From: Paraglomus occultum
Taxonomy: Eukaryota; Glomeromycota; Glomeromycetes; Paraglomerales; Paraglomeraceae
NCBI GenBank assembly: GCA_910592205.1
Contig: CAJVPJ010000279.1
Location: 1-31,130 of the forward strand
DNA: 31,130 bases
Direction of reading: 5' to 3'
Below the pieces are notes generated by a model that did no database searches, was not told the origin of the DNA, and saw only the letters and a program-made list of their open reading frames with translations. Positions within the stretch are counted from its first letter, which is position 1; every line of letters begins with the position of its first letter. The translations under genes were made by a program, and so were the position numbers. Positions 5,040 to 15,276 of this stretch are shown one piece after another.

Positions 5040-5769
5040 CTGGATATGGAATCAAGGGATACAATCTTCATGACTAAATTAGCTGAAAAGTGTCTTGAGC
5101 TATCATACAGAGCAATTTCAAGACATTTGGGAGGCTTGCACTATAAGAATAACATGCCTTTGGCTACCCAATGCTTACCGATAATCATAAAAGAAGATGA
5201 ATTGAATGGGCTTATACTCATCTCAATGATAACTGGCAGAAAGCCCTTTTTACGGATGAAACTGCATTTCAGCTATTTCGGAATACCATAACACAGTGGT
5301 ATAAAGGCCCCCGACCAGTTCGTCCTATCCCCAAAAAAATTTTCGCTTGGGGTGGATTTGCGCGAAGGGCAAAACTGCTTTGAAAACATAATGACGGGGC
5401 CAATTTATGTCGAAATTACCTACCCAAATACGACAAATGCTCGGAAGAAGCTGGCGCTTCCAACAGGATAATGATCCGAAACATACAAGTTTTGTCGCTA
5501 AACAATTTCTACAGGAAAATATGCCCAGAGTTGTCGAATAGTCCTGACATACTGTAAATCCAATAGAAGATCTATGGAGCATAGTTAAAACAAATGTTGA
5601 AAGGCGAAGACCGCAAAATCTTAGTGAATTAAGGCGTTTTATGGTAGAAGAGTGGGACGGTATTCCGGATATAATTGTAAAAAATTTAGTAAACTCAATG
5701 AAGAGACGTTGCGAGGCGATTATTGAACGTAATGGTGAACGAGGGCAAGATTTTTTTGTAAACGTATAA
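5040..5769 (+). pseudogene. Tc1/mariner transposase pseudogene (DDE, DD34E-like)
   Basis: Several frames together spell a Tc1/mariner transposase. Visible pieces are ALFTDETAFQLF (first catalytic Asp), KGPRPVRPIPK, IFAWGGF, RFQQDNDPKHTSF (second Asp) and NPIEDLWSIVK (catalytic Glu). They are followed by an intact C-terminal run ending FFVNV and a stop at 5767-5769. The reading is broken by an in-frame TGA at about 5197, by frameshifts near 5335-5450 and by two stops at about 5540-5552. In life the enzyme would cut at terminal inverted repeats and insert at TA. No intact terminal repeats are seen around this copy; a Tc1-like end sequence (TTTTGTCCCACACTG then TA) lies upstream at about 4812-4830 but points the wrong way to pair simply with it. 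A dead copy. Confidence 0.85.
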
Positions 5770-5772
5770 TAA

Positions 5773-5788
5773 TAAACAAGCTTGTTTA
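5773..5788. repeat. 16-base perfect palindrome after the transposase stop
   Basis: TAAACAAGCTTGTTTA is a perfect palindrome starting four bases beyond the transposase stop codon. It could be part of a former element end or chance in AT-rich DNA. Confidence 0.4.
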
Positions 5789-6530
5789 CTGAACTTGTCT
5801 TCAACCTATCTGAAGAAAGTTACAAGTGCAATAAGATGAGATTTGTACTCTATTTAGTAATGATAGTGATTACTGTGGATAGTGCGAAGCATTATGTTAT
5901 AATCTTATTTTTCAGACTCGTTGAAAATAAGAGTGTTAGATATCCAAAATTCCAGCTCTTACGAGGCGTCTCGGTCTGCGAGATAGAGAATTCAAGGACA
6001 TTGTCTTACTTGAATATGAATATGGAAATCCAGCAACCTCAAATCCGTATTATTATACCAATTTAGAAAAACAGATCAGTCTTCCGAGATTGGACGAATC
6101 TGAAGGCCAACCAAGATAGATAACAATGGTAAAGACCAATCATCTGTCGCACTAGTCCATATTAGGCATGACATTTTGAACGTTTATTTCTATCTTCCAT
6201 ATAACATGCTCATTTTTATTCTCACAACAAACTGTCATACAGAATCATCATCAACGACTCGGATCAACTAACCTCTCACTTTTCCCTACCTTCACTCAAG
6301 TCGCCCCGTCAGAAACACTCCGCGTATGAAAGAATCGCAATCAGCAAGTAGGAAAAAACACTTACGAGCTCGTGAAACTTCCCCGGAACCGCTCCAAAAT
6401 TTTCATTGGAATGATGGTAAAAGTGAGAAGTCAACGTGGGTGATTATAGTAAAGACACTACCAATCAGTAATATAAGCGCTTAGCTTTCGGATTTCCTCT
6501 TTGAGTATAGTGAATCGGGCCGTTATGTAA
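5789..6530. other. Non-coding or decayed stretch with gene-like debris
   Basis: No gene can be supported. A protein-like patch on the plus strand at about 5955-6119 (RDREFKDIVLLEYEYG, ending at a stop) is not joined to a credible start. A 52-residue plus-strand frame (6326-6484, MKESQSASRKKHLRARE) has no recognisable homology. Both may be remains of former genes. Confidence 0.35.
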
Positions 6531-6766
6531 TTAACTTCGTGACGAAAAGATATAGTTTTTTTTGACGCGTAAGAGACGGATACAAAAGATGAAATAATGA
6601 CAATAAGGGTGGATGGAGGATGAATGGGCGTGGATGGATGAATGGGCGCGGATAGGTGGATAATGATTGGACGGAGAGGGTTTTAATGCTTGAAGGAGGA
6701 TGTATATAGATAGAGTGCTACAAAAGAGGGTGATTAAGAATAGAGAAGGGGCAGCTTGTGACGATA

Positions 6767-8350
6767 TCAAAAGGGGCGTGAATGTTGATGAGAAGAGGGT
6801 GCTACAATATGAGAAGCCCCAAAAGAGATACGATATTTTTCCAGAGATGCTCGCTTCTCTTCCTACAATGCCAAAAAATTGAGATTAAATAAACATCCAA
6901 CCAAGTAAAAGAAAAAAAAAACAATAGACGTAAATATGTACCGGCGATACTTCATTGTCGCTATATACGAGCACAGTCGCCGTAGGCTTCTTCTGAGTTT
7001 GCTGCTGTCCCTGTTGTTGCTGGCCTGCAACGGACTGACTCTGTTCTATAGATATCGCTGCTCCACCATCTTCCGTACCTACACCATTTGACATCGCGAT
7101 AGCTGTCCCTGTTTGTTGGTAAGCTGCTTGTGTCGATGTTGTAGTCACATATGGAGGATAGGTACCATCCACGGGAGATGTCACAGATGTAGCGGTAGTA
7201 GCAGGTCGGACGTAAGGTTGCATTCCATTGAAGGTAGTTTGTGGATTTGCTCCGGACGGATTGTAAGGTGGTATATTACCGTAAGGTGCTGCTGTTGGTC
7301 CTCCTCCAACTGGAGGACGCCAGCCTGCTGCTGCCGGTGGTGTACCAGACGGTGGACCGCTAAGGGAACAAAGACAGGAATTGCAATGGATCAATATTGA
7401 AACAATTTGAATTAGATTATGAAAACTAGCAACTGCTTCAATACTTACGATGGCCGATACGGATATGCTTGTGAATATGGCTGAGTAGGTGGTACACCAG
7501 GCCGTTGATAAAATTGACTGTATTGATGAGGCATTAAGGACGCTGTCTGCTGTGTCGGGTATCCTGGATATGTACCATAGGAGTACGCGTTTGATGGATT
7601 TTGCATCATAGCTTGGTGCTGCGTCAATTGTTTCCCATCTGACAAGTCTGACCCATCTATGCTGTCTGTTCTCGATTTCTTCACTACATGTCCGCTCTCT
7701 ACTTCTAATGAAGTTTGATGAGCAATGACATCTTCGGGAGGAATACCTTCCATCCCAAAAATCTCTACATCAGTTGACTCTCTTCCTCGAATTGCATTTG
7801 GAACCCTGTTTAAACAATTAACAAGGTTCAATGAAACAGATATAATAGATGAAAGATAAAGATTAAGATGAGAAATAAGGTTGAAAATTAAAAGAAATGA
7901 CAACACATGACACACTGGCCTTTGAAGGTACTTGTGTTAGCCTTGACTAATAGGAGAGGGTGTTGTATTATATATGATGATAATGGTTGATAACAATGAA
8001 ATATAAACAAACAAAGTCAGGAGACTGATCCTTACACTGTAATGGTTTCTTTATGAACTTGAGCTACATGAACTACCATACCACCAGCAGTATTCAGTTT
8101 TTTGCTACAATGTGGGCATTTGAAGTGTTTTGCCTTTTGGTGTTGTATGAGTACTTTTTCATCCTCAAAATCTCTCTCACAGTACCTTTACAGGAAAAGT
8201 CACATGCAATAAGTTCGTAAGCTGCATCAAAGTTCTTCGTAAAACACAAGACAGAATGATCTCGACTGTTTACTGTTGCTTTGCCCTAGTGGGAAGAACT
8301 TACCAGCACCAGGGACGTACTACTACTTGCTTCTTCTTTTTCTTCCCCAT
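6767..8350 (-). CDS. BuGZ/ZNF207-type zinc finger protein, Bub3-binding
   Basis: Five exons (8350-8304, 8185-8036, 7805-7449, 7359-6942, 6862-6767) join in frame to about 355 residues. The N-terminus MGKKKKKQ, then [20 protein letters not shown] and [11 protein letters not shown], forms the paired C2H2 fingers of the BuGZ/ZNF207 family, followed by the hallmark VPNAIRG and [12 protein letters not shown]. The middle is a low-complexity Pro/Gln/Tyr/Gly region, as in animal BuGZ, where it drives condensation. The C-terminal [15 protein letters not shown] resembles the GLEBS motif that binds Bub3; its two halves lie on either side of the last intron. In animals BuGZ stabilises Bub3, aids kinetochore-microtubule attachment and binds splicing factors. 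It shares a 189-base divergent promoter with the AP endonuclease gene. Identification is strong; the function here is inferred from the family. Confidence 0.92.
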
Positions 8351-10311: not shown

Positions 10312-12069
10312 TCAAATATCCTCAAAGTCATCATCGCCGCCATTGACAGCTTGCACGACAAACATCAGTAGGTTGGCTGTGAAATGCATCGAAAATCCGT
10401 TATATAAACCACGAATTCCATAATTATCTAACCAACTCGTCTGCTTTCGTTGCAAGTGACGTTTCGGAGCATTACCACGTTTGGGCATCTTCCTCTGGCT
10501 TATACCCTCTTCCACGATAATTCTATATCCACAGTCCAGCATACCAACGTACGGTGCTTGGCGTGTCTGTACAACGGTTTCGAATCTTTTTCCAGGCACA
10601 CGAGATCGTACTTGACAGTGAAGTCTTTTACGGATCGTTTCGATCGGAAGAGTAATCATCAGCTGAACAGTATTGAGCAACAGTTGGACGGTTCCATAAA
10701 TAAGGGGTGAATCGCTAGCTGATATGTGGAAAATACGGTCAATTAGAATTGGAATGCTATTTTCCAAAAGTGGGTCAATGGCATGATAGACGATGGAAGG
10801 AAGAAGGTTATGACCCCAGTATAAAGAGGATAAACCCTCCTCTTTTATCATCTGGCGAAGACAATCAAAGAGTCCTTTATATTTCCTCTGACTTGGAGAT
10901 GATGTCTGGACTATGAGCCTAAAAATCATTAACGATAACATTGAATTAGTGTGAATATAAATCAGAGCTTGATAACGGTGGTTTCACCAATTAACAACAC
11001 TTGATATTAAACAAGACACCCATATTCCCCCTTTTCCCGATAATGTACCTTGTCCTAGCCACCTCTAATGGACTCAATAGTACACCAACGACTATATGAC
11101 TAGCAACAAGTGTAGCAAGATTAGGTCCGACTTTGTCCAAATAGACTAACGGAATCGTATCATCATACAGATCGAATGCATCATTTAAGATTCCTTCGAT
11201 GGTAGGTTGAAAGAAGAGATGTGCCATATCATACAGCCAGCCAGTGAATTGTCCTTAAAAGATGGATGAATATTAATGATGCAGTTATGCAGTCATAATT
11301 TTCATTAGAATCAAATATTATGCCGATTAAGGTTTTGCCAATTTTGTTTGACTAGCAAAACGTCTTACCTTTCCACAAGGATTTCCAACCTTCTGTTTTG
11401 TGTTTCGTTAGGATGCTTATAGTACCCCACACACCGTCATCTAATGGTGGTAACATGTAAGCGGGTCTTGTTGACTCATCATATATGGATGTGTTTAATA
11501 GATATCCTTGTTTGTCTGATGTCTTCCTCTTTCTAAATGCTGGTGAAGTTGGATCAAGCTGTGGCTTTGTAGATCTGCCTTCCTGATCAAAATCTGACAA
11601 GTTTTCATCTGAAGACTATAGAATAAGAACGAGAGTTCTTTTAGCTATACAAATGTTCTCGGCATAAGAATATAGATAAAAAGTTACGTATTTGTTTATA
11701 CAAGTATCATGGACATACCTCATCATCAGACTCTAGATTGTTTTCACGAACAACGGGCACAACGTCTTCATTAGGTAGATACTGGACTTGTAACAAAGTC
11801 TTTGATACTTCAAATGGGTTGGATATTGCTGTGCTGACATATTTGACCAAAGCAAAACTGCCTAATTCCTTCAGCGCACTGTGAGTCTCTTCATCAACAA
11901 GTTTATTTTGTTCCGATTGATTATTGGCTATAGCATTAGAGCCGGGTGTATAATAGTAATCTGTATTTGGAGGGACGTAATATGGTCGAAGTGGATGTAC
12001 GATTTTCGATTGAGGAAAGGGCGTGTAAGTGTATTTTGGAGAGGGAGAGGGATCGGACGCAGAAGACAT
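10312..12069 (-). CDS. UGO1: Ugo1-like mitochondrial outer-membrane fusion protein
   Basis: Four exons (12069-11719, 11615-11369, 11253-11049, 10918-10312) join with matching phases to 469 residues, close to the roughly 500 of yeast Ugo1. The N-terminus is Pro/Ser/Tyr-rich (SPKYTYTPFPQSK), followed by ISNPFEVSKTLLQVQYLP, a carrier-type repeat with the characteristic Ugo1/SLC25A46 divergence. Later carrier-like repeats include LLSPLEVARTRLIVQ, YKGLFDCLRQMIKEEG, LYWGHNLLPSIVYH, LPIETIRKRL and GIRGLYNGFSMH. The P-x-(E/D)-x-x-(K/R) signature is retained as PFEV, PLEV and PIET. Ugo1 links the fusion GTPases Fzo1 and Mgm1 rather than transporting metabolites. The acidic linker (ESDDE, SSDENLSDFDQEG) between repeats one and two is typical of fungal Ugo1. 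The family call is confident; the mechanism is by analogy. Confidence 0.9.
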
Positions 12070-12299
12070 GACGTTGAGTACTCGTGAGTTGAACCAGTCA
12101 AGAGTACCAATTAAAGGGGGGAGTTTATTGCACGCAACAGTGTAAAATGGTCCAAGATAAAAGTATCGCGCTTCGATTATTTTAATTTTATTTTTTTGAT
12201 CTGAATTTTTTTTAATATGTAGATCTGAACATACTCTATGGATTGTAACACAATAACAGTATCTCCGGAGAGGAATCAAGGCTCCATCAAGCAATGCCC

Positions 12300-12822
12300 G
12301 GAGAATCTCGATCCCTGCTGCTGGGAGTGTTGGATATTATAACATGACCTAATTCTTCTGCTTTAGCCATCAGACATGGCGAAACTGATAGTGGGCCACC
12401 AGAGCATTTACGAACAGCTTTTCGTGATATCTTTCTTGTTTTCGAGTTACCATATTAATATTCGATACTCAGTGATAATGACATGAAATTCGCGAGTAAA
12501 AATGCGACACTCTTTTTATGAGCTTCACTTTACAGGTGCTTGATTTTTCGTCCCATCCGAAAAATTGCCGTATCAAGTTGCGAGACCCTTTTTCTTCTGA
12601 CGTTTCCATATGTTTGCCATACACAAATTAGAATAATGTTCGAATGCCGTTGGCCAACCTTTAGTAGGAGAGTACCATGTGAAGGGTGTACGAACACGCC
12701 AGGGTCAATGGAAATTGCATTAACAGAACCATTCGCTTGCGTTTCGCGGAGTTGTTTTGATGTTTCGTAAACCCATGAAGTTTCCATTCATTGGTTTTAC
12801 AAACATATGTGAGCTTGCAATT
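12300..12822 (-). pseudogene. Decayed Fanzor (eukaryotic TnpB-like RNA-guided nuclease)
   Basis: Minus-strand pieces appear in the order of a Fanzor/TnpB RuvC nuclease. First comes a pre-RuvC strand (CKLTYVCKTNEWKLH, about 12819-12775). Then the RuvC-I motif AISIDPGV (catalytic Asp at 12706-12704) continues, after a two-base offset that looks like a duplicated GT, as RTPFTWYSPTKG (12692-12657). A basic segment ends RKIKHL, then EAHKKSVAFLLANF and, after a frameshift, HVIITEYRI (about 12527-12455). MVTRKQERYHEK and ALVAHYQF (12453-12373) match the bridge region, and AEELGHVII follows at about 12364. A DRD near 12310 could be the RuvC-III Asp, but the zinc-finger part is missing. N-terminal homology may extend to about 13110 but is too broken to define. 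Frameshifts and stops make it inactive. No flanking element ends or guide-RNA region are identifiable. The call rests on remembered family motifs and motif order. Confidence 0.72.
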
Positions 12823-13129
12823 GGGCGTCACGTATTCTGTGAGAGATCAGGCCACTTATTAATATGCCTTTTCTTTTCGAAATAAAAAGGCCACATGCAC
12901 AGCGAGAAGAGTCATCAGATAACTTAAACCATGCACTCTGAAAAGCCAGGGAAATTGCGTGTCTGTTTCTTACATGTTTCACCCATGCCATCAGCAGAGA
13001 AATGTGCCATACAAATCGCGTTGGTTGTCCAGCGTGATGACAGGCTTATACATAAAAACGGTTTCCACGTGGCTTTTGAAAACTTTTGCACACCAGTTAC
13101 CGAAATGATAAGGTGGATCCATTAATTAT

Positions 13130-13600
13130 CCTGTTTCTACAAGTAGTATTAATTGAAAATAAAATAAATAAAATAAAACAAAAACAAGGGAAAAAAACAA
13201 ACGAGGAAGTAGTTAATGCAATCACCTCATTTATTATGATAGTTTACGAATTGGGTAGAATTTATTCAGAAAATTTTTTAAAATGAATGCCTTATGAACA
13301 ATTTACCGCGAAGCGTAAAGAAAATTTGGCCAAAAACCGGACATTGTCTTCTAATATCAGGTCATATACAGTAATTATTTAGACATCAATCGACAGATAG
13401 CTTAATATTGTTTTTTGTAATAGTTTGTTTTAATCAATTATTTAAAGACCTTATCAAGTTGCCATCATAATATTGCTAATTCTCAGAAGATTGTAGATAT
13501 GTTCAAAATAGGAGAAAGCAGTAGTAATTCGGAAGAAGCACTGAAATGACAGCTGTTAGCGCTAGTGGAGCATTGGAAAGTTTAGAGACTGTACAAGCAT
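13130..13600. other. AT-rich spacer, no gene seen
   Basis: The sequence is A/T-rich with lysine-coding A runs at about 13150-13200 and no recognisable coding, RNA or repeat structure. It separates the Fanzor remnant from the dispersed coding repeat. Confidence 0.5.
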
Positions 13601-13609
13601 TTCTAATTC

Positions 13610-14875
13610 AGCAAGAAAATGCGTACTAATAAGTGAACGTTTTACTGCTACAGTAGCCGTCAAAAGTATCCGAACGGGTGTATCACCTAAACGCACATAA
13701 TAATAACTCGTTAAATTTTCCAGCAAAAAGGTTTTTGACAACGCCTGATCACACGTAAAATTTCTGCTCGAGCGGATGTCTCCAGCAAATTTTCCAAACA
13801 TTGGATATTTTGTTTCGAAAATGTATGAAACATATTAATATCAAAATCGCATTCGCTTATTTCGAACTTAAACTTCAAAAATTTATCTCTACATGTTTCT
13901 AATCAGTTGTTTTTCTATTGCTTATCTAAGCCATCTCTGCATGGTTTTTGGAACTTCTAGTCGAATTATGAAACGATTTGTTACTATAAAAAAGAAACAA
14001 CTGCATTATAACTCTTAACGTCGTCATCGCTTATTTGCATTTCGTAGTAGCGATCACGCTATAATTTGCCCATTGATCATAAGCATAATTACGGCTGGTT
14101 CAAAGAATAAAAAAGAAGAAGAAAATACAAAATTTTGTTATACAAGCGTCGAGATATGAATTTTTGAAGTTTTATGGTTGGCATCGCATAGAGGATGTAG
14201 TATAGTCCGATATAAAATATTCGATGTTTGGAAAATTTTCTGTAGACATCCGCTCAAGCTAAAATTTTACGTGTGATCAGGCGTTGTCAAAAACCTTTAT
14301 GCTGGAAAATTTAACGAGTTATTATTATGTGCGTTTAGGTGATACACCCGTTCGGATACTTATGACCGCGACTGTAATACTCCACTTTGTCAGAAAAACG
14401 TACCTCAATATGTTAGGAATTGGTCACACACACTTGAAATCATTTGGCGAAATACCAGCGCGTTTATGGTAGCATAAAACAAATGCCACGATGGAAAACC
14501 AAAATAACCATTGATATAAACGTTGCTACTGCCGTGAAGGATTGTATGCTGAAATTTATGGATTATCAAGTCTTGGTAGAAATGTCAATCGCATTACTCC
14601 TTACACTCTTGCCAGCTGAAACGAGTTACAAGTCTATCGTAATTTTATTGCAGGTCTCGAAAACGACAGCACGTTGAAATATGCGTTCCGTAAGTTATGA
14701 CACCAATAATTCCTTATATTAATATTCAAATTATGAGTTCCACAAACGGATTTAGGTGACACACGCCAACATTTCTTACAGTACAACGCTCGCAAAGAAG
14801 AAGAGGCGAGAGACTTACTAAAAAGATACAAAGAAATTCTTGGGTTCCATAGTAGATTTAATGTAAATTAATTTT
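13610..14875 (+). pseudogene. Broken dispersed coding repeat, copy A, split by a MITE
   Basis: The sequence on either side of the inverted-repeat element (13651-14374) is colinear with 30055-30565 of this window. Shared coding pieces are RTNK at the left junction, KTYLNMLGIGHTHL at about 14395, ITIDINVATAVK at about 14508, AGLENDSTLK at about 14652 and NARKEEEARDLLKRYKE at about 14784-14836. Frames shift between pieces and stops intervene, so it is dead. Where copy B keeps TDLCNTCQ, copy A reads TDLGDTRQ, so a CxxC pair has been lost. I do not recognise the family by name. A repeated, decaying gene with a Cys pair beside an inverted-repeat-like end suggests a transposon protein, which is inference. 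Confidence 0.6.
13651..14374. mobile_element. 724-base Tc1/mariner-type MITE inserted at TA
   Basis: The ends are long inverted repeats of about 145 bases: 13651 onward (CAGTAGCCGTCAAAAGTATC) and the reverse complement running back from 14374 (CAGTCGCGGTCATAAGTATC), with few differences along the arms. Both sides carry TA (13649-13650 and 14375-14376), the Tc1/mariner target duplication, and the CAGT...CAAAAGTATCCG end is typical of that superfamily. The roughly 430-base interior has no transposase, so movement would need an enzyme supplied elsewhere. The short coding-like strings in the arms (ENLTSYYYVRLGD) appear in both orientations because they are the repeats themselves. Confidence 0.85.
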
Positions 14876-15031
14876 ATATTAGAGATAGACCTGTATGGAA
14901 TGTGTTATAATTTTTAGGTAAAGTGTTACTCAATAATGTTACAGGTGTTAAAACCGTAATTTATATAAATTTTGTGAATAATTGTGCAATCTTCAGCCAC
15001 ATTAGCTTCTCATTTATATCGCATACAAAAG

Positions 15032-15067
15032 GTTTACTTTGTCTGGTTTTGTTGCAGTCTGCCCCAT
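15032..15067 (+). repeat. 36-base dispersed motif, copy 1 (possible element end)
   Basis: GTTTACTTTGTCTGGTTTTG followed by TTGCAGTCTGCCCCAT recurs almost exactly at 30946-30981 and, inverted, at 27639-27675. Here and at 31 kb it lies downstream of a copy of the same broken coding repeat, so it probably marks that repeat's right end. It is 210 bases upstream of the Stm1-family start and may now lie in that gene's promoter. Confidence 0.75.
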
Positions 15068-15276
15068 CTTACCTTCCAGCGTGACAGGAGGTCCGTCGTA
15101 TTACATAACAATTATTCTGTGCAGGTGTTATCTTGGTATTATTACGTAATGGAAAGATGGTTTCTGATTGGCCGAGTCCACCACATTCTTCTCTTTTTTC
15201 CCCCATTGCCAGACAGGACATACAAGTCATCCAAGAGCGCGACAATCGTGTATTGTCATCCATCCACCAATACGTA

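What the first reader, a model, noticed from the sequence alone, without database searches (positions are those of the whole stretch)
12300..12822. Remnant of a eukaryotic RNA-guided nuclease (Fanzor)
Seen: the RuvC-I core ISIDPGV followed, across a two-base offset, by RTPFTWYSPTKG; then EAHKKSVAFLLANF and MVTRKQERYHEK, all on one strand and in the order of TnpB/Fanzor proteins. Known: Fanzors are TnpB-derived RNA-guided nucleases spread by transposons in fungi and other eukaryotes. Inference: this is a decayed copy that lost its zinc-finger part. It lies next to the Ugo1 promoter, so its arrival may have reshaped that gene's 5' flank. Intact relatives in the same genome could be active.
Basis: partly seen in the sequence, partly recalled or inferred. 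Interest (0 to 1): 0.78.

Follow-up and report, generated by a model that had tools for sequence, protein, structure and literature searches.

The report
Dead Fanzor gene in fungal genome

Summary
Confirmed. Window 12238-13230 (-) is the decayed 3' part of a Fanzor element. The quoted motifs are where stated; tblastn with database relatives reaches E=3.7e-27, 101 bits, against at most 31.6 bits in 40 shuffles. The same genome, judged by one host protein to be Paraglomus-like (93% to P. brasilianum), holds 81 matching pieces on 37 contigs; no piece is an uninterrupted full-length gene, but several are cut by contig ends. The family has DPG in RuvC-I and a shifted RuvC-II glutamate, the Fanzor marks of PMC10711439; its best solved relative is mimivirus L79, so I call it Fanzor2-like. 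No recombinase gene was seen in the family's elements; two degraded IS607-type recombinase pieces lie elsewhere. The window copy lost its 5' part, zinc finger and shifted glutamate, gained a 112-bp insert, and its private substitutions are even over codon positions: a pseudogene. A 44-nt 3' block, coding end and possible guide-RNA scaffold, is free of substitutions. Whether the insertion affected the neighbouring gene could not be tested. Known kind, modest interest.

The parts
12238..13230 (-). whole remnant: 3' part of a Fanzor2-like element; left end and 5' part of the gene not found in the window
   Evidence: DNA matches to paralogous copies: 12238-12305, 12330-12893, 13006-13230 in pieces
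13100..13230 (-). most 5' part with family similarity; contains an A/T-rich stretch that may be an intron (inference from frames, not tested)
   Evidence: 68-70% to C1363 over 13101-13230; NRIINGSTLSFR at 13100-13135
12894..13005 (.). 112-bp insert absent from the paralogues, between GCCA repeats (12890-12893 and 13006-13009); single copy in the genome
12695..12715 (-). RuvC-I motif ISIDPGV (Asp-Pro-Gly retained)
   Evidence: aligned with relatives
12657..12692 (-). RTPFTWYSPTKG, continuation of RuvC-I in another frame
   Evidence: same letters in P0001-P0003
12471..12526 (-). region of the canonical RuvC-II site, split over two frames (EAHKKSVAFLLANF and FTREFHVIIT)
   Evidence: P0003 reads EMHKKSVAFFTREFDAIII
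12373..12453 (-). MVTRKQERYHEK and EKLFVNALVAHYQFRHV, counterpart of MVNRKTRK...VRKMLCWAHYRFR
12318..12331 (-). junction of the deletion that removed the shifted glutamate and zinc finger (counterpart of P0012 residues 367-404)
12290..12316 (-). RuvC-III remnant RDRD, out of frame with what follows
12261..12305 (-). conserved 3' block: end of the coding sequence and possible start of the guide-RNA scaffold; no substitution against the family, one extra base
12238..12259 (-). right-end remnant (TGTTATTGTGTTACAATCCAT); the terminal CCG of other copies is lost

Best explanation
A Fanzor2-like element of IS607 style, carrying the RNA-guided nuclease gene but no recombinase gene that I could find, inserted upstream of the carrier gene and then died. 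Its 5' part, zinc finger and most of the 3' RNA region are gone, its frames are shifted and a 112-bp insert splits it. Shown here: homology, order of motifs, copy number in the genome, ends of the family's elements, decay. Inferred: an intact member would make a nuclease with catalytic residues RuvC-I Asp, shifted RuvC-II Glu and RuvC-III Asp, guided by an omega-RNA that overlaps the end of the gene and runs past the right end into the flank; the element was moved in trans by an IS607-type serine recombinase. The window copy can do none of this.
For: DNA and protein homology with controls; 1382 protein relatives at E<=0.001, 120 listed, named fungal ones from Diversispora, Cetraspora, Glomus, Gigaspora and Borealophlyctis; TnpB family model NF040570 over its cut-off for 4 of 4 relatives tested; PF07282 over cut-off for 3 of 3; DPG and invariant shifted Glu in 12 aligned relatives, the latter also in mimivirus L79, the best solved relative, E=2.6e-35; right ends ACAATCCATCC followed by G in 15 of 19 and then by any base, as the fixed right-flanking nucleotide of IS607 elements in PMC10711439; left ends without a matching inverted repeat; IS607-type recombinase pieces on C379 and C1247; neutral private substitutions 5/64, 4/60, 5/56.
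Against: No reference tree was made, so Fanzor2 against Fanzor1 rests on the best solved match and on the ends. Target dinucleotide and empty site were not established. The two recombinase pieces are fragments below the NCBIfam cut-off (33.3 and 38.8 bits against 110); only that on C1247 passes the Pfam cut-off. The RNA structure has modest statistical support. A raw frame of the window has no Pfam match.
Confidence: 0.85

Rival explanations
1. A Fanzor carried by another eukaryotic transposon type (Fanzor1, or a Fanzor2 captured by a cut-and-paste element), not an IS607-style one.
For: Fungal Fanzors often ride Helitron, Mariner, MuDR or Sola elements (PMC3627910, passages), and PMC10432273 says Fanzor1 is the type highly spread in incertae sedis fungi (passages). 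No intact element was available.
Against: No long inverted repeat at the ends of the loci that keep a left end, a single fixed G after the right end, mimivirus L79 as best solved relative with no recognisable Fanzor1 entry in the list up to E=10 (I did not check that a Fanzor1 chain is in that library).
Confidence: 0.13
2. A bacterial TnpB, by contamination or recent transfer.
For: Bacterial TnpB proteins are among the matches (P0086, P0110, P0114).
Against: Copies are dispersed over many contigs with fungal-looking neighbours, and the named matches that score best are from mycorrhizal fungi.
Confidence: 0.01
3. A chance run of motif-like peptides or another transposase family.
For: No Pfam match of the joined raw frame.
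Against: Shuffled and reversed controls and DNA paralogues.
Confidence: 0.01

Closest known systems
Fanzor2 proteins of IS607-type elements (mimivirus L79, PDB 9b0l; ISvMimi elements of PMC3627910)
   Same: RuvC with DPG and shifted glutamate, zinc finger, RuvC-III DRD; ends without inverted repeats; best solved relative
   Different: the fungal family has a long extra N-terminal part in its relatives (P0008, P0011), no recombinase gene seen in the element, dozens of decayed copies; the window copy is dead
Fanzor1 of Spizellomyces punctatus (SpuFz1; PMC10432273, passages read)
   Same: multi-copy fungal Fanzor with full-length and partial copies; the paper reports functional ghost omega-RNAs at loci without the gene
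   Different: flanked by inverted repeats there, not here; no sequence match to it was seen or sought by accession
IS607/IS605 TnpB
   Same: general architecture, NF040570 over cut-off
   Different: shifted RuvC-II glutamate and eukaryotic setting

Membership tests
TnpB/Fanzor superfamily | significant match of intact relatives to TnpB family models | tested here: met
   NF040570 over cut-off in 4 of 4; PF07282 over cut-off in 3 of 3; genome copies over PF07282 cut-off in 20 of 24 matches
TnpB/Fanzor superfamily | window copy itself homologous to these proteins | tested here: met
   E=3.7e-27 with controls; E=3.5e-21
Fanzor lineage (marks of PMC10711439) | DPG in RuvC-I | tested here: met
   invariant in 12 relatives; ISIDPGV kept in the window
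Fanzor lineage (marks of PMC10711439) | shifted RuvC-II glutamate, canonical one not conserved | tested here: met
   family: Glu 405 of P0001 invariant, canonical site E, D or N, L79 has the Glu too. Window copy: this stretch is deleted. That the E/D/N site is the canonical one is my reading of the alignment
Fanzor lineage | intact zinc finger and RuvC-III in the window copy | tested here: not met
   zinc finger deleted, RuvC-III out of frame: a remnant, not a working member
Fanzor2 against Fanzor1 | position in a reference tree | not tested
   no tree made; only best solved relative
IS607-type element | no inverted repeats; fixed nucleotide after the right end | tested here: met
   three contigs with left ends, 15 of 19 right ends with G
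IS607-type element | IS607 serine recombinase in the element | tested here: not met
   none seen in frames of C517 and of the left-end loci; one PF00239 match in the genome, on another contig
omega-RNA of TnpB/Fanzor | structured RNA with pseudoknot at the right end | tested here: inconclusive
   pseudoknot partner found as best pairing in 4 of 7 family sequences tested, 1 to 44 of 300 shuffles as good; Rfam no match
Fanzor | RNA-guided DNA cleavage | not testable with these tools
   needs biochemistry

The most novel reading that the evidence does not exclude
In this mycorrhizal fungus, Fanzor elements without their own recombinase spread in trans, and dead copies keep a substitution-free 3' block because their ends or omega-RNAs are still used by proteins encoded elsewhere, so that the genome holds a stock of ghost guides (ghost omega-RNAs are known to work for Spizellomyces Fanzor, PMC10432273, passages). 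The window copy keeps the block but lacks the pseudoknot partner.
Probability: 0.1. Interest if true: 0.5.

Novelty: new member of a known kind. Interest (0 to 1): 0.22.

Why it matters
It adds a multi-copy Fanzor2-like family in a probable Paraglomus-like mycorrhizal fungus, with both ends of the element described. Searches of the paper library found no paper holding IS607 with Rhizophagus, three unrelated ones holding TnpB with arbuscular mycorrhizal, and none on this theme among the 40 listed of 82 that mention Fanzor; supplementary tables of the Fanzor surveys were not seen and may include such fungi. The protein database already holds relatives from Diversispora and others, some named transposase. 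The window copy itself is a fossil with no demonstrated consequence.

Tried and rejected
The conserved block as a purely non-coding end: rejected, it reads RALLDGALILSGD as in the end of P0001. Fanzor self-cutting as the cause of the many 10- and 20-bp gaps between copies: rejected as a Fanzor-only effect, because a Tc1-type family (PF13358 and PF01498) in the same genome shows similar gaps; microhomology at the gaps is about twice random (6 of 40 with three or more bases, 6.5% in simulation). The first left end that I took (GGTGGTAGCC) was about 290 bp too far inside. The first gap script returned nothing, probably because of its BLAST gap costs; the second mixed strands for the palindromic MITE; one search replaced both. 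Exact search for the 45-nt block with three mismatches found only the window itself, because the window copy has one extra base. Rfam gave no match. Folding energies were not exceptional: z from 0.61 to -2.33 in the family sequences. In the block test C571 and C913 show no depletion, and the C466 row pairs a block and a coding part of opposite orientation, so I also give sums without it. Structure prediction was not used.

Full report
Observation. A hand-joined reading of the window frame gave no Pfam match. Relatives settle the matter. As DNA, 12200-13200 gives 41 matches in the same genome, itself included, the longer ones 67-80% identical, and contigs C517, C632, C571, C913, C622, C434 and C1149 among them carry PF07282 matches found independently (24 in the genome, 20 over the cut-off). 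A read-through of the longest copy, C517, found 1382 proteins at E<=0.001, of which 120 are listed. These 120 were compared back with the window: best E=3.7e-27 and 101 bits, against at most 31.6 bits in 40 shuffles of the region and 23.1 for the reversed region. A genome search with P0001 scored the window piece at E=3.5e-21 with three stops.

Host. One host protein from contig C571 is 93% identical to Paraglomus brasilianum and 73-77% to Geosiphon, Rhizophagus irregularis, Ambispora and Acaulospora. I take the genome for a Paraglomus-like arbuscular mycorrhizal fungus; this rests on that one protein.

Family. Twelve relatives align with invariant I-D-P-G-V in RuvC-I and an invariant Glu just before the zinc finger, while the site that I read as the canonical RuvC-II one holds E, D or N. 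These are the marks that PMC10711439 gives for Fanzors and the closest TnpBs (passages read). The best solved relative of the profile is mimivirus L79, E=2.6e-35; the next entries are TnpB, Cas12f and similar nucleases. PMC3627910 places the ISvMimi elements with Fanzor2 in IS607-type elements (passages read). I therefore call the family Fanzor2-like; no reference tree was made.

Element anatomy. Loci on three contigs (C200, C622, C169) start with GATGAA(A/)C- or GATGAAATTATA-type left ends after unlike flanks. Of 19 right ends that I took as family members from the list (other loose matches left out), 15 have G directly after ...CATCC or its variant, followed by A 3, C 4, G 4 and T 4 times. 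From the 290 bp of left-end sequence and the C517 copy (5689-8046), which itself lacks a stretch present in C913, I estimate a full element of about 2.7 to 3 kb. I saw no recombinase frame in C517 or in the left-end loci, and PF00239 matches the genome once, on C1247. A second piece with weak IS607 similarity lies on C379 about 0.3 kb before a Fanzor-type HTH. Mobilisation in trans is inference.

Decay of the window copy. Family similarity runs from 12238 to about 13230. The shifted glutamate and zinc finger are deleted. A 112-bp insert, single-copy in the genome, lies at 12894-13005 between GCCA repeats. Private substitutions, at sites where at least 85% of the other copies agree, number 48 of 436 and fall evenly over codon positions where a frame could be assigned (5/64, 4/60, 5/56). 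Against C517 directly there is a mild third-position excess (11, 13, 19), so part of the divergence may be older than the death of the copy. Among 81 matching pieces on 37 contigs for P0001 (contigs counted by me) and 63 pieces for P0011 none is an uninterrupted full-length gene; the search reads exon by exon, and several copies are cut at contig ends.

The 3' block. The 44-nt block at the end of the gene is the best conserved stretch of the family: pooled difference 1.6%, against 4.9-17.6% in 44-nt windows that do not overlap it. It codes for the protein end after RuvC-III. The window copy has no substitution in it and one inserted base. Of 12 copies tested for private substitutions, nine keep the block: 6 of 393 sites inside, 300 of 3846 outside; without C466, whose block and coding part have opposite orientation, 4 of 349 and 239 of 3454. 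C571 and, against C517, C913 show no depletion. C228 and both C564 copies have a third-position excess, so conservation in live elements before insertion explains much of this; use of the ends in cis by a recombinase is another plain explanation. Three right ends seen (C980, C632, C466 plus strand) have lost most of the block.

Guide RNA. A pairing of GGCATTGC with GTAATGCC inside a stem is the best scoring one in C1149, C517 and C1363, and C237, of another subfamily, keeps it with changed letters; 11, 44, 1 and 9 of 300 shuffles did as well, and in C517 the enclosing stem is a different one. C1356, C880 and C52 preferred other pairings, and the window has none (225 of 300 shuffles as good). 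PMC10711439 describes a pseudoknot in IS607 TnpB and Fanzor2 RNAs (passages). I rate the RNA as plausible, not shown.

Surroundings. The remnant lies between a gene with a mitochondrial-carrier domain (10315-10941; likely ATG at 12069) and an Stm1-like frame at 15133 that stays below the Pfam cut-off (18.1 against 23 bits). The space also holds a 728-bp MITE-like element (13649-14376) with 169-nt inverted repeats, 92% complementary, which splits a short dispersed repeat, and another high-copy repeat at about 14835-15068. Nothing here speaks for or against an effect on the carrier gene.

Verdict. It is a dead member of a known kind. Open questions are whether live copies and guide RNAs exist in this fungus, and why the 3' block stays free of substitutions.

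Noticed in passing
window 13649-14376: 728-bp MITE-like element with 169-nt inverted repeats (92% complementary); near-complete copies at 84-87% on C228, C20 and C885 and many partial ones.
   Followed up: partly
window 13613-13650 and 14374-14420: Two halves of a short dispersed repeat, split here by the MITE; both halves lie close together on other contigs such as C1306, C374, C709, C1358, C410 and C1288.
   Followed up: no
window 14835-15068: High-copy repeat with two conserved parts (about 14835-14881 and 14992-15068); the first look gave 292 candidates, 40 scored, 57 matches. Unidentified; a copy also lies left of the Fanzor on C25.
   Followed up: no
L039, L041, L014, L060, L022, L045, L047, L077: Copies of transposons differ by many gaps whose sizes peak at 10 bp, with further groups near 18-20 and 28 and none at 13; a Tc1-type pair has 10 gaps of 5 or more bases at 3.4% substitutions, MITE copies fewer (1 to 4 per pair). 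Could be a deletion habit of this genome or an assembly effect.
   Followed up: partly
L012 and L016 (C564:18085-21030): Two Fanzor 3' parts stand head to head around a MITE-like centre as one large inverted repeat, arms 67% alike; C913 and C466 also hold oppositely oriented Fanzor pieces.
   Followed up: partly
L051 2452-2796 (C379) and L068 1402-1770 (C1247): Pieces of IS607-type serine recombinase in a fungal genome (NF033518 E=3.2e-8 and 6.6e-10, below its cut-off).
   Followed up: partly
L039 2283-2490 (C517:5782-5989): Short tandem array between left end and gene of the Fanzor element; copies differ in it.
   Followed up: no
window 12894-13005: 112-bp insert between GCCA repeats inside the remnant, no second copy found in the genome; origin unknown.
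   Followed up: partly
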